DNA from: Acidimicrobiia bacterium
Lineage (GTDB): Bacteria; Actinomycetota; Acidimicrobiia; Acidimicrobiales; Aldehydirespiratoraceae
Reading direction: 5' to 3'
Assembly: GCA_022820805.1 (NCBI GenBank)
Contig: JAJEEV010000050.1
Coordinates: 22,215-86,214, forward strand
DNA length: 64,000 nt
Positions 22,163 to 25,048 of this stretch are shown in pieces. Both the position numbers and the translations under genes were made by a program. The notes beneath the pieces were generated by a model. That model worked only from the letters and a program-made list of their open reading frames with translations, had not been told where the DNA came from and did no database searches. The first letter of the stretch is position 1. Every line of letters begins with the position of its first letter.

Positions 22163-22783
22163 ATGAGCGTGCCCGGCAGCGCCGTTGACGGGCTCCTTCG
22201 ACGGATAGCCCAGTTTCACCGGAGCCGTCCGCTAGTACCGGAGTTCCCGATGGTGGCTGCGGTGCTCGACGCGCTCGACGACGCTCGCTGTCCCGCCGAC
22301 GTCGAGCTGAACCTCCTGCCGGTGGTCCGCCACCTCGACGCGGTCGGGTCCAGCGGCGATGCCGCCATCGACGCGGTTCTTGAGGAATTCCTCCGTCTCG
22401 GTCCGGCGCTGCCGTGGCACCGGACCGCCGGCTACCTCGACGTGCTGAGCCGGGACTACCTGGACAACTACGGGTACGTCCAGTTGCTGGGTCCGAATTC
22501 CATCGTCGAGCACGCCACCGTGAGGGTCGGGATCGGCCTGTGGGGCCCTCACCTCCACTACCCGGCCCACAAGCACGAGGCCGAGGAGCTGTACCACGTG
22601 CTGGCTGGGGAGCCGTCGTTCAGCAGCGGCGACGGCAACGCTCGCGCCACCCGGCCGGGCGACGCCGTCCACCATGCGCCCTGGCAGGAGCACAGCCAGG
22701 ACTTCGGTCCCACGCCGACCGTGCTCCTGTACTGCTGGACCGGCGCGGTCGAACCCGACGCGGTCCTGGTGAGCGACCGCTGA
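22163..22783 (+). CDS. DMSP lyase-like cupin protein (DddL/DddQ family)
   Basis: This 206-residue protein matches the dimethylsulfoniopropionate lyase cupins. The metal motif is HYPAHKHEAEELYHVLAG (about residues 130-147), with two histidines, a glutamate and the tyrosine that acts in catalysis in DddQ. The second motif GDAVHHAPWQEHSQDF (about residue 165) gives the last histidine. An N-terminal helical region (FPMVAAVLDALDDARCPADV) is typical of the family. Activity would release dimethyl sulfide and acrylate from DMSP. No acrylate-detoxifying gene (acuI, acuN) is visible in the window, so in vivo DMSP use is not certain. It probably shares a transcript with the MOSC gene. Confidence 0.75.
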   Translation: MSVPGSAVDGLLRRIAQFHRSRPLVPEFPMVAAVLDALDDARCPADVELNLLPVVRHLDAVGSSGDAAIDAVLEEFLRLGPALPWHRTAGYLDVLSRDYLDNYGYVQLLGPNSIVEHATVRVGIGLWGPHLHYPAHKHEAEELYHVLAGEPSFSSGDGNARATRPGDAVHHAPWQEHSQDFGPTPTVLLYCWTGAVEPDAVLVSDR

Positions 22784-22855: not shown

Positions 22856-22887
22856 TGCGTTGGCAAGGTTTGCCAACGCACTATGCT
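22856..22887 (+). promoter_or_regulatory. parDE operator and promoter
   Basis: An 11-bp perfect inverted repeat, TGCGTTGGCAA (22856-22866) and TTGCCAACGCA (22870-22880), with a 3-nt spacer, lies directly before a TATGCT -10 box (22882-22887). The box ends 8 nt before the parD ATG. This is the expected place for a ParD ribbon-helix-helix dimer to repress its own operon. Confidence 0.7.
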
Positions 22888-22895
22888 CGGATGCC

Positions 22896-23129
22896 ATGAC
22901 CACGATGAACGTGTCGCTCCCGGAGGAACTCAAGACCTTCGTCGACTCGCAGGTCGACCTCGGCCACTACGGATCAACGAGCGAGTACGTGCGTGATCTG
23001 ATCCGACGGGATCACGACCGCCGCCGTCTCCGAGCCGCACTCCTCGAGGGAGCCCGCGCCCCGGTCGCCGGCACGGCGGACGCCGCCTATTTCGCATCGC
23101 TCCGACATCAAGCCCGAGCCGACGCCTGA
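22896..23129 (+). CDS. parD: ParD-family ribbon-helix-helix antitoxin
   Basis: This 77-residue protein begins MTTMNVSLPEELKTFVDSQV, the beta strand and first helix of ParD/CopG repressors, followed by YGSTSEYVRDLIRRDHDR. The C-terminal tail (GTADAAYFASLRHQARADA) is the toxin-binding part. The ATG at 22896 is the first in-frame start after the -10 box and operator. ParE starts 10 bp after its stop. Confidence 0.88.
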   Translation: MTTMNVSLPEELKTFVDSQVDLGHYGSTSEYVRDLIRRDHDRRRLRAALLEGARAPVAGTADAAYFASLRHQARADA

Positions 23130-23139
23130 ACTCGAGTCG

Positions 23140-23457
23140 GTGCAGGTCGAAGTCCGCACCCTTGCCGCCGCCGACATCGAGGCCGCGGTCACCCTCTATC
23201 GCGCCGAAGCCGGCTCGGAGACTGCACTGGACTTCGTGGACGCGCTCGAGGCCGCCATCGACCATCTCCGCCACTATCCGAACTCCGGATCCCTCCGGTT
23301 TGCCTTCGAACTCGAGATCCCGGAGCTACGGAGTTGGTCTCTCCAGAAGTTCCCCTACCTGATCTTCTACGTGCCCCAACACGACTGCTTCGACGTCTGG
23401 CGCGTCCTGCACGCGAGGCGAGACATCCCCGCCTACCTGTCGTCTGATCCTCCCTGA
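23140..23457 (+). CDS. parE: ParE/RelE-superfamily toxin
   Basis: This 105-residue protein has the RelE/ParE fold: LAAADIEAAVTLYRAEAG helices, LRHYPNSGSLRF turn, then SWSLQKFPYLIFYVPQHDCFDVWRV strands and a final LHARRDIPAYL. ParE toxins poison gyrase, while RelE-type members cut mRNA; the order after ParD favours ParE. The translation start is GTG. It ends 69 bp before the right copy of the 25-bp repeat. Confidence 0.87.
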   Translation: MQVEVRTLAAADIEAAVTLYRAEAGSETALDFVDALEAAIDHLRHYPNSGSLRFAFELEIPELRSWSLQKFPYLIFYVPQHDCFDVWRVLHARRDIPAYLSSDPP

Positions 23458-23525: not shown

Positions 23526-23550
23526 GCGCAGCCCGGTCAGCCGTGGACGT
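23526..23550. repeat. 25-bp direct repeat, right copy, flanking parDE
   Basis: This copy is identical to 22809-22833. It contains the last codons and the TGA (complement of 23537-23539) of the CMD/AhpD-like gene. The two copies bracket the whole ParDE module. Confidence 0.85.
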
Positions 23551-24067
23551 AGTGGGAGGGGTCTTGGCGGGGGTCGGGGGTCTGGTTGATGGGGCAGTCG
23601 TTGGCGATCTCCAGTATCGCCAACGTCCGCCCGATGCCGACGCAGTAGCCGATCAGGGTGATCAGCTCCAGGATCTGCTGGTCGGTGAAGTGCTGCTTCA
23701 TCCGGGCCCAGTAGTCCTCGTCGTGCATCATGGCCTCGTGGTCCCAGCAGAACCGCTCGGCCGTCTCGGCCGCCAGCTTCTCGGCCTCGCTGAAGTCGTC
23801 GCTCTCGGCGTAGGTGGAGACCTGCTGGTAGAGGTCCTCTTCAAGTCCTTGCTGCATCGCCGATGCAGACCGGGTGTCGATTCAAATGTGGCACTGGTTG
23901 ATCTGGGCCACCCGCATGCGGGCGATCTCGCGGACCCGCACGTCCAGGGAGACCTTGGTGTAGAGCGCCTGGGCGGCGGCTCCCATGGCCATCCCCACGT
24001 CGGGCTGGAGGCTCCACATCCGGATGCGCTCGAGCCCTTCGCCGTCGGGGAAGTCGATGCGTGCCAT
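23537..24067 (-). CDS. CMD/AhpD-like protein with in-frame TGA at the second active-site Cys (candidate selenoprotein)
   Basis: Read through one TGA (complement of 23882-23884), this is a 176-residue carboxymuconolactone decarboxylase/AhpD-family protein of normal length. The first 61 residues end VREIARMRVAQINQCHI, then TGA, then IDTRSASAMQQGL and a complete C-terminal half. Homologues have CxxC here, so TGA replaces the second cysteine: C59-H-I-U62. Frame is continuous on both sides (no frameshift, no other stop). A perfect 7-bp hairpin starts 13 nt after the TGA. AhpD-like selenoproteins with CxxU are known from marine metagenomes. The alternative is a single nonsense mutation giving a pseudogene. 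It follows the DUF4242 gene by 28 bp. Confidence 0.72.
23852..23868 (-). promoter_or_regulatory. Candidate bacterial SECIS hairpin
   Basis: On the minus strand CTGCATC pairs with GATGCAG around a GGC loop, a perfect 7-bp stem. The stem starts 13 nt after the TGA, and the apical loop starts 20 nt after it, with G as its first base. Those values fit the published bacterial SECIS pattern (short stem, apical G, loop about 16-37 nt from UGA). CC and GG outside a 3x3 internal loop could extend the stem. Confidence 0.62.
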
Positions 24068-24486: not shown

Positions 24487-24723
24487 ATGGCGACCACGAC
24501 GATCCGTATCGACACCGACACCCACGCCCGGCTCGTCGAGCTCAGCGATGCGGCCGGCGCCTCACTCATCGACACGGTGCGCGACGCCGTCGAGGCGCTG
24601 CGGCGCCAGCGGTTCGCCCGCCGGGTGATGGCCGAGATCGCCGAGTTGCGCAGCGATCCCGCAGCGTGGGCGGCGTATCTGGCCGATGCCGAGAGCACGT
24701 CGGTGACCGATGGCCTCGGTTGA
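24487..24723 (+). CDS. Ribbon-helix-helix antitoxin of a MazEF-like pair
   Basis: This 78-residue protein begins MATTTIRIDTDTHARLVELS, a ribbon-helix-helix DNA-binding strand and helix. It then has GASLIDTVRDAVEALRRQRF and an acidic tail with LRSDPAAWAAYLADAEST that should bind the toxin. It overlaps the toxin gene by 14 bp. The start is leaderless, 7 nt after TAGACT. Confidence 0.87.
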   Translation: MATTTIRIDTDTHARLVELSDAAGASLIDTVRDAVEALRRQRFARRVMAEIAELRSDPAAWAAYLADAESTSVTDGLG

Positions 24724-25048
24724 CGATCTCTGGCTGGTCGACTTTGGTGACCCCTATCCCGGTGAGCCCGCCACCGTTCGTCCCGCGCTCGTGATCGGGC
24801 CGCCGGACACGTTCGGCCCCGACTTCCCGTTCGTGATCGTGGCACCGCTGACGACAACCCGGCGCGGCCTGTCGCTGCATGTCGAGATCGAGTCGGACGT
24901 CGAAACTGGTCTCGACGAGACCAGCTATGCCCAGTGCGAGTTGATCCGGTCCATCAACCGCCGCCGTCTCGTGCACCGCCTGGGCCAGATCGACTCCAGC
25001 GCAAGCCATCAGGTCACTTCAGTCGTCAAGACGCTGCTCAACCACTGA
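24710..25048 (+). CDS. MazF/PemK-type endoribonuclease toxin
   Basis: This 112-residue protein matches the MazF/PemK family. It has the N-terminal WLVDFGDPYPGEPATVRPALVI (active-site arginine in the VRPALVI strand), then VIVAPLTTTRRG (Thr/Ser of the active site) and SYAQCELIRSINRRRL, and ends HQVTSVVKTLLNH. It would cleave single-stranded RNA at short sequence motifs. The partner antitoxin is encoded immediately upstream with overlap. Confidence 0.9.
   Translation: MASVDDLWLVDFGDPYPGEPATVRPALVIGPPDTFGPDFPFVIVAPLTTTRRGLSLHVEIESDVETGLDETSYAQCELIRSINRRRLVHRLGQIDSSASHQVTSVVKTLLNH

What the first reader, a model, noticed from the sequence alone, without database searches (positions are those of the whole stretch)
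23537..24067. Candidate CxxU selenoprotein of the CMD/AhpD family with a SECIS-like hairpin
Seen: two halves of one CMD/AhpD-like protein are in the same frame and separated by a single TGA (complement of 23882-23884), which stands at the second Cys of the CxxC redox site (QCHI-TGA-IDTRS). No other lesion is present. A perfect 7-bp hairpin (CTGCATC-GGC-GATGCAG) starts 13 nt after the TGA, and its loop begins with G at 20 nt. Known: bacterial SECIS elements sit just downstream of UGA with an apical G, and AhpD-like selenoproteins occur in marine metagenomes. Inference: the gene encodes a 176-residue selenoprotein that automatic annotation would split in two. It sits next to a DUF4242 gene, which could be a partner.
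Basis: partly seen in the sequence, partly recalled or inferred. Interest (0 to 1): 0.9.

Follow-up and report, generated by a model that had tools for sequence, protein, structure and literature searches.

The report
CMD-family selenocysteine redox enzyme
A redox-enzyme gene interrupted by a TGA codon in an Acidimicrobiia genome very likely makes one selenocysteine-containing protein of an already known type, while the protein database searched here holds its close relatives mostly as cut-off pieces.

Summary
One CMD-fold (PF02627) frame, 23537-24067 (-), is broken only by TGA 23882-23884 at the second Cys of CxxC; a 7-bp hairpin follows 13 nt later. The own genome encodes SelA, SelB, SelD (itself with TGA) and tRNA-Sec. 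Of 98 homologue rows (96 different genes), 83 have TGA and 15 Cys at that codon; Glu -15, Cys -3 and Arg +4 are kept in 98 of 98. After TGA the peptide ASAM is spelt GCA TCG GCG ATG in 74 of 74 rows; four Cys orthologues with the same peptide never use that spelling. The stem has both-sided changes in 6 of 8 pairs (shuffles 2.2); the loop G is invariant in 72 of 72 distinct stretches. So this is very probably a bacterial selenoprotein; incorporation itself is untested. CxxU CMD/AhpD-like selenoproteins have been known since 2005: this is a new member of a known kind, under the cut-off of every NCBIfam model that matched it, with an invariant Arg where AhpD has its catalytic His. The DUF4242 neighbour is a genus-level association, not a conserved partner. 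The named strain Ilumatobacter nonamiensis YM16-303 carries gene and machinery and could serve for a test.

The parts
23537..24067 (-). Complete selenoprotein gene: 176 codons with TGA read as Sec at codon 62, then TGA stop
   Evidence: full-length conservation
23882..23884 (-). In-frame TGA, Sec codon 62, at the second Cys of CxxC
   Evidence: TGA in 83, Cys in 15 of 98 homologue rows
23882..23893 (-). Redox motif C59-H-I-U62 (CxxU)
   Evidence: C59 in 98 of 98 rows
23852..23868 (-). SECIS-like hairpin, 7-bp stem CTGCATC/GATGCAG, loop GGC; an eighth outer pair (23869/23851) is a T-C mismatch here but G-C in 45 of 72 distinct stretches
23861..23861 (-). First loop base G, invariant in 72 of 72 distinct stretches
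23927..23929 (-). Glu47 codon, equivalent of the AhpD proton-relay Glu by spacing (12 residues before the first Cys)
   Evidence: E in 98 of 98 rows; spacing from PMC3141380 (passages)
23870..23872 (-). Arg66 codon, in place of the AhpD catalytic His (CxxCxxxH)
   Evidence: R in 98 of 98 rows; alignment with PA0269 and Atu0492
23537..23539 (-). True stop codon TGA
   Evidence: TAA or TAG at this place in L021 and L028-L031
24096..24380 (-). SCO4226-like (DUF4242, PF14026) gene just upstream, probably cotranscribed; genus-level neighbour only

Best explanation
This is very likely a single selenoprotein gene of the CMD (PF02627) fold, in which the TGA at codon 62 would be read as selenocysteine with the help of the hairpin that follows it, giving a CxxU redox site. 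Shown: the conserved reading frame, the TGA/Cys exchange, the conserved hairpin, and genes for SelA, SelB, SelD and tRNA-Sec in the genome. Inferred: SelB with Sec-tRNA binds the hairpin at the ribosome and puts Sec in at 62; Sec62, with Cys59, then works as the attacking residue of a peroxide- or disulfide-reducing site (selenenylsulfide Cys59-Sec62, recycled by a cellular thiol). Glu47 stands where AhpD has its proton-relay Glu, and Arg66 where AhpD has His; Arg66 may help to hold the selenolate. The substrate is unknown; a peroxidase or thiol-disulfide oxidoreductase role is my best guess (about 0.6), while selenocysteine insertion is close to certain from the genomic evidence.
For: Machinery: tRNA-Sec (68.3 bits, anticodon TCA), SelA 377.8 and SelB 296.5 bits, both over their cut-offs, from genes 15 nt apart, SelD 358.4 bits with TGA in HGAGUGCK. 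Homologues: TGA in 83 and Cys in 15 of 98 rows at the same codon. In the protein database all 14 hits that span the position have Cys, and the other 88 of 102 are pieces on one side of it. Codon-level constraint: ASAM spelt GCA TCG GCG ATG in 74 of 74 TGA rows (72 different genes) against 0 of 4 Cys rows with the same peptide; relative codon entropy 0.14 over 5 hairpin columns against a mean of 0.87 over 145 others, the lowest of which is 0.22. Covariation: 6 of 8 pairs with changes on both sides (shuffled mean 2.2, 1 of 500 as high), 22 such cells (shuffled 2.8, 0 of 500), slid controls at most 2 pairs. Specificity: 17 of 17 pattern matches in this gene. Of the 21 genomes whose TGA copy I read, 16 have both tRNA-Sec and SelB, 5 have one, none has neither; in genomes with neither, 1 of 22 listed matches holds a TGA, and in that one (G187) the TGAs are the terminal stop and beyond. 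Fold: AF2 pLDDT 87.5, pTM 0.83; best PDB matches by E-value 7xw1/2ijc (PA0269 AhpD) and 2gmy.
Against: No protein-level evidence. RNAalifold's own default consensus on the 72 stretches found only 3 other pairs at -0.92 kcal/mol; evaluated directly, the named stem gives -8.4 (7 pairs) to -11.2 (8 pairs), and a ribosum run recovers all 8 pairs. The outer pair is broken in 26 of 72 stretches, this one included, pair 19-31 in 8, pair 23-27 in 6 and pair 18-32 in 2; one of five measures, further pair types, was reached by 13 of 500 shuffles, and shuffles ignore relatedness. The related-loci scan used the peptide [SA]ASAMQQG as one of two patterns (any codons) and kept the best 80 of 109 relatives, so rows with that peptide are over-represented. 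The gene is accessory: 6 of 15 same-genus genomes have no match and 1 only a fragment. Cys orthologues live in genomes that still have Sec machinery, so Sec is dispensable here. The catalytic role is inferred from fold and motif only, and the AhpD His is missing.
Confidence: 0.93

Rival explanations
1. Pseudogene or sequencing error: a nonsense mutation in a gene that once had Cys at this place.
For: Taken alone, the window shows one stop codon in one frame.
Against: The same TGA is in 83 of 98 rows from many assemblies; the 21 TGA copies printed in full have no other stop before their ends; both halves are under purifying selection, dN/dS 0.07-0.29 in the 6 of 8 comparisons that could be computed; the hairpin is conserved.
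Confidence: 0.01
2. Two separate genes: a 61-aa protein and a 106-aa protein started by re-initiation at the ATG that lies in the hairpin.
For: Gene finders call it so: 74 of 102 database hits begin exactly at that Met, and the ATG is in 74 of 83 TGA rows.
Against: 9 of 83 TGA rows lack the ATG, and two of these (L133, L034) have no ATG, GTG or TTG within 39 codons after the TGA. The two halves together make one CMD domain. In 15 rows the same frame is joined by a Cys codon.
Confidence: 0.02
3. TGA is read as another residue (Trp or stop suppression) and not as Sec.
For: The read-through frame is open; TGA=Trp codes exist elsewhere.
Against: The gene itself ends in TGA; no row has Trp, only TGA or Cys; the genome has SelA, SelB, tRNA-Sec and a Sec-type SelD.
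Confidence: 0.02
4. Sec is inserted, but the protein is not a peroxidase: it could be a thiol-disulfide or other reductase working with clade-specific catabolic neighbours.
For: The AhpD His is replaced by an invariant Arg. Neighbours differ by clade: a molybdopterin oxidoreductase ends about 15-52 nt upstream in 25 of the 27 loci where its homologue was found; CoA-transferase and hydrolase (L064), or AMP-ligase, EthD and glyoxalase genes (L105) elsewhere.
Against: Fold, Glu and CxxC/U spacing match AhpD-like proteins, and PA0269 of that fold has weak peroxidase activity (PMC3141380, passages).
Confidence: 0.35

Closest known systems
AhpD-like 2 / CMD domain-containing selenoproteins (PF02627, CxxU) of the GOS and Sargasso Sea metagenomes (PMC2398784, PMC1088965) and CMD-like selenoprotein MBW1767730.1 listed in PMC13188914
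   Same: CMD fold, Sec at the second position of CxxU, hairpin directly downstream; may include this lineage.
   Different: Their sequences were not compared here. 'Actinobacteri' occurs 0 times in the main texts of PMC13188914, PMC2398784, PMC1088965 and PMC9312934.
AhpD-like 1 / YciW-type selenoproteins (COG2128; TIGR01926 in the 2026 review)
   Same: CMD/AhpD fold with CxxU.
   Different: Window protein scores 31.6 bits against cut-off 81.8 and lacks the His of CxxUxxxH; the second CMD selenoprotein candidate of the same genome (L053, CHYUIVHH) scores 137.2 and is of this type.
NCBIfam NF053654 (GroundWater_YciW, YciW-related (seleno)protein)
   Same: Best NCBIfam match.
   Different: 48.7 bits, cut-off 310.
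AhpD-like protein PA0269 of Pseudomonas aeruginosa (2o4d, 2ijc, 7xw1)
   Same: Best solved relative by sequence (34 bits) and by fold E-value (TMq 0.66-0.71); Glu and CxxC at the same spacing.
   Different: Cys instead of Sec; His55 where this lineage has Arg66.

Membership tests
Bacterial selenoprotein | In-frame TGA inside a conserved domain, with Cys homologues at the same place | tested here: met
   83 TGA and 15 Cys of 98 rows
Bacterial selenoprotein | Stem-loop immediately downstream with a small apical loop containing G | tested here: met
   feature as stated in PMC1088965 (passages). RNAalifold default run alone did not find it, examined
Bacterial selenoprotein | SelA, SelB, SelD and tRNA-Sec in the genome | tested here: met
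Bacterial selenoprotein | Selenium shown in the protein | not testable with these tools
   needs 75Se labelling or mass spectrometry
CMD family (Pfam PF02627) | Score over the curated cut-off and CMD fold | tested here: met
   46.3 bits, cut-off 23; all-helical model with AhpD-like PDB matches
AhpD-like peroxidases | Glu and CxxC (here CxxU) of the proton relay | tested here: met
   E47, C59, U62 at AhpD spacing; E and C in 98 of 98 rows
AhpD-like peroxidases | Invariant His four residues after the second Cys | tested here: not met
   Arg in 98 of 98 rows; His stated invariant in PMC3141380 (passages)
NCBIfam models of known CMD/AhpD (seleno)proteins (NF053654, TIGR01926, NF041238, NF041047) | Curated cut-off reached | tested here: not met
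   (48.7 of 310; 31.6 of 81.8; the other two not listed at E 0.001); the homologues L091, L037, L038 and L133 do not reach them either
GOS AhpD-like 2 / CMD-like selenoproteins | Sequence kinship with the published members | not tested

The most novel reading that the evidence does not exclude
An Acidimicrobiia-centred lineage of CMD selenoenzymes in which an invariant Arg has replaced the catalytic His of AhpD, so that a selenolate-arginine pair runs a redox chemistry different from alkylhydroperoxidase; in freshwater and Ilumatobacter lineages it serves the molybdopterin oxidoreductase encoded just upstream, and some lineages have recently gone back to Cys while dissolving the hairpin by mostly synonymous changes.
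Probability: 0.3. Interest if true: 0.6.

Novelty: new member of a known kind. Interest (0 to 1): 0.42.

Why it matters
The protein database searched here holds the close relatives as cut pieces (88 of 102 hits), so a redox selenoenzyme of many Acidimicrobiia goes unseen. It also offers a clean natural experiment: orthologues in the same genomic place, some with Sec and hairpin, some with Cys and no hairpin, in genomes that keep the Sec machinery. That makes the question why Sec is kept or given up directly testable, and a named strain (Ilumatobacter nonamiensis YM16-303) carries gene, tRNA-Sec and SelB.

Tried and rejected
DUF4242 as a conserved functional partner: rejected as general; passages of PMC4186839 (SCO4226, nickel binding) gave no link to selenium. 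Viral carriers: none confirmed among 66 pattern matches. Plasmids: 59 records, all under 60% identity, not followed. Wider spread: in 296 genomes of the phylum, 2 of 21 listed matches outside the order list a TGA; read, one (G384) is a Cys form whose TGA is its stop, the other (G385, 32% identity, 50 bits) has TGA in a CGYU motif, so distant CxxU relatives exist outside the order. RNAalifold's default consensus contradicted the hairpin and was examined. Ten neighbour proteins from seven loci were typed by Pfam without a common theme; the rest of the context rests on BLAST clusters. Paper searches that gave nothing to the point: selenocysteine with Acidimicrobi- (3 papers, listing only), with Ilumatobacter (1 paper, listing only), and (2 papers, listing only).

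Rows and counts: the 98 rows are the 80 loci plus 18 of the 30 loci; the other 12 were left out as repeats of named records. Two of the 98 still repeat a gene (L033 = L123, L040 = L131), so there are 96 different genes, 81 with TGA. L030 was left out of the tree as a supposed repeat, which one search shows it is not (28 differences); the tree therefore has 95 rows. The stem count uses 72 distinct stretches. In one search only the 150 matches listed entered. Of its weaker matches and those, I later read 12: 10 have TGA in the motif and 2 (G384, G174) have Cys with a terminal TGA, so 'TGA inside' in those lists overcounts; all 12 have Arg at +4.

Full report
WHAT IS THERE. On the minus strand, 24067 to 23537 reads as one 176-residue frame interrupted once, by TGA at 23882-23884, and ended by TGA at 23537-23539. 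Read through, it is a CMD-family protein (PF02627, 46.3 bits, cut-off 23); the first half alone is just under the cut-off and the second matches nothing. The TGA stands at the second Cys of CxxC. A perfect 7-bp hairpin with loop GGC starts 13 nt later. Such a hairpin follows 7 of 1355 TGA triplets of the window, so by itself it proves little.

MACHINERY. The window's genome (3.40 Mb, 53 contigs, 94.8% complete) encodes tRNA-Sec (Rfam 68.3 bits, ARAGORN anticodon TCA), SelA and SelB 15 nt apart on one contig (377.8 and 296.5 bits, both over NCBIfam cut-offs) and SelD (358.4 bits), which itself carries a TGA in HGAGUGCK. Of the six CMD genes found in the genome, a second one also has TGA, in a CHYU-IVHH motif, and matches TIGR01926 over its cut-off. 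So at least three selenoprotein genes are likely in this genome.

TGA AND CYS. Among 198 related genomes, eight same-genus genomes hold full-length copies at 85-95% identity with one TGA, and further families hold TGA copies at lower identity (69% and less). A scan of the named species genomes gave 109 relatives, of which the best 80 loci were kept. Of 98 rows read from both sources (96 different genes), 83 have TGA and 15 have Cys at this codon. In the protein database, 87 of 102 hits are C-terminal pieces (74 of them beginning at the Met inside the hairpin), one is an N-terminal piece and 14 span the position, all with Cys; lone first halves are too short to be candidates in that search. In the 21 genomes whose TGA copy I read, 16 have both tRNA-Sec and SelB, two tRNA-Sec only, three SelB only and none neither; tRNA-Sec was found in 127 and SelB in 130 of the 198 genomes (126 over cut-off). 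In genomes with neither, 21 of 22 listed matches have no TGA, and the one that does (G187) has Cys in the motif and TGA only at and after its end.

THE HAIRPIN. The peptide ASAM that covers the stem is spelt GCA TCG GCG ATG in 74 of 74 TGA rows (72 different genes); background codon use in these genes gives 0.0085 for the first three codons. Four Cys rows with the same peptide (L109, L119, L121, L132) use other spellings in 4 of 4, one of them differing in a single codon. Codon entropy relative to its maximum is 0.14 over five hairpin columns against 0.87 over 145 others. Over 72 distinct stretches, 92.7% of stem cells pair; 6 of 8 pairs have changes on both sides (22 cells; shuffles mean 2.8, none of 500 as high), and sliding the partners leaves at most 2 such pairs. 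Examples: A-U to G-C at one pair in 9 stretches, U-A to C-G at another in 5. The first loop base G is invariant in 72 of 72. Against this, 26 stretches break the outer pair and 8 an inner one, and the default RNAalifold run found other pairs; evaluation showed that the named stem is far more stable than its answer, and 71 of 72 stretches have at least 5 of 7 stem pairs in their own fold. A degenerate pattern of TGA plus hairpin, made from the alignment, occurs 17 times in 198 genomes, each time in this gene; it misses 4 of the 21 copies read.

SEC GIVEN UP. In a tree of 95 rows with motif and hairpin masked, the four Cys rows are nested in a Sec group (starred set of 22 rows: 17 Sec, 5 Cys). 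This tree needs 5 Sec/Cys changes in all; the starred branches alone force 2 (quick tree, SH-aLRT only, several long branches). These four, and L124, keep a homologue of the same molybdopterin oxidoreductase gene just upstream, and their genomes have tRNA-Sec and SelB (5 of 5). Of seven Sec-form genomes tested alongside, five have both and two have one; the Cys form of Solimonas (L134) has neither. So here the hairpin follows the codon and not the genome's Sec trait. The direction Sec to Cys is inferred from the nesting; the root was not tested.

NOT TWO GENES. Nine of 83 TGA rows lack the internal ATG, and two of these have no ATG, GTG or TTG within 39 codons. Both halves show dN/dS of 0.07-0.29 in the six of eight comparisons that could be computed.

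FOLD AND SITE. The AlphaFold2 model (33-row alignment, Cys in place of Sec) has pLDDT 87.5 and pTM 0.83. Its nearest solved folds by E-value are PA0269 (7xw1, 2ijc, 2o4d) and Atu0492 (2gmy); the debrominase Bmp8 comes lower. PMC3141380 (passages) names Glu36, Cys48, Tyr50, Cys51 and His55 as the proton relay and Cys48, Cys51 and His55 as invariant. Here Glu47, Cys59 and Sec62 have the same spacing, but the His is Arg66; Glu, Cys and Arg are kept in 98 of 98 rows, and Arg also in the 12 more distant relatives read later. Hence it works like an AhpD-type site in outline, but is not filed as AhpD. That Sec62 is the attacking residue is inference.

CONTEXT. The SCO4226-like gene lies directly upstream in 7 of 9 same-genus loci (in one more it is cut by a contig end), but not in G008, where the MazF-type region lies directly upstream, nor in the other 21 loci tested. 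Other clades have other neighbours: a molybdopterin oxidoreductase (typed in L091; homologues in 27 loci, ending about 15-52 nt upstream in 25), CoA-transferase III and hydrolase (L064), or AMP-ligase, EthD and glyoxalase genes (L105). No neighbour common to all clades was seen within about 4 kb.

WHAT IS KNOWN. CxxU CMD and AhpD-like selenoproteins were described from the Sargasso Sea (PMC1088965, passages) and GOS data (PMC2398784, passages: AhpD-like 1, 299 sequences; AhpD-like 2, pfam02627, 70 sequences) and are listed in reviews (PMC9312934, PMC13188914, passages). This lineage may be part of AhpD-like 2; I could not compare. None of the three NCBIfam models that match this protein at E 0.001 reaches its cut-off. 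The records are titled mainly Acidimicrobiia or Actinomycetota; a distant relative with TGA in CGYU lies outside the order (G385). Selenocysteine together with Acidimicrobi- or Ilumatobacter gave three papers and one paper, none with the terms in title or abstract (listings only). I therefore call it a new member of a known kind, with a divergent active site.

Noticed in passing
G000:C44, locus L053 1375-1920 (+): A second CMD/AhpD-like gene of the same genome has a TGA in CHYU-IVHH, matches TIGR01926 (137.2 bits) and has a hairpin after the TGA: a likely AhpD-like 1 selenoprotein.
   Followed up: partly
G000:C44, locus L017 1501-2415 (+): SelD is itself a likely selenoprotein (HGAGUGCK).
   Followed up: partly
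window 22860-23457 (+) and 24487-25048 (+): The DUF4242-CMD pair is flanked on both sides by toxin-antitoxin-type genes: ParD/ParE, and a PemK/MazF-like toxin with a small gene before it that matches no Pfam family.
   Followed up: partly
window 22163-22783 (+): Cupin protein matching Pfam DMSP_lyase (100.1 bits, cut-off 27), which would fit a marine host.
   Followed up: no
L109, L119, L121, L132 (with L124): Cys orthologues in genomes that keep tRNA-Sec and SelB, with the hairpin dissolved.
   Followed up: yes
L091 1759-3957 (+) and homologues in 24 further loci at the same place: Molybdopterin oxidoreductase (PF00384) ending about 15-52 nt upstream of the CMD gene in freshwater and Ilumatobacter lineages; a possible functional link.
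   Followed up: partly
L157 (G385:C176:2503-3501): A distant CMD relative outside the order (32% identity) has TGA in CGYU-SGVR; a further candidate selenoprotein.
   Followed up: no
L159-L167: Second-copy CMD relatives in genomes of the same order with TGA in CVVU, CLTU, CPIU, CPVU or CHYU motifs: several paralogous CxxU proteins per genome are likely.
   Followed up: partly
L069, L090, L105: Records titled Euryarchaeota, Bifidobacterium breve and Planctomycetaceae carry copies nested among Acidimicrobiia ones; the titles are probably wrong or the bins mixed.
   Followed up: no
G199 (genome of L119); G139: G199 (Baikal) has two tRNA-Sec and two SelB genes, and G139 has two tRNA-Sec genes.
   Followed up: no
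protein P0101: A database protein of 162 aa carries a DUF4242 domain and the N-terminal part of this protein before the TGA, which suggests a fusion or a frame shift in that assembly.
   Followed up: no
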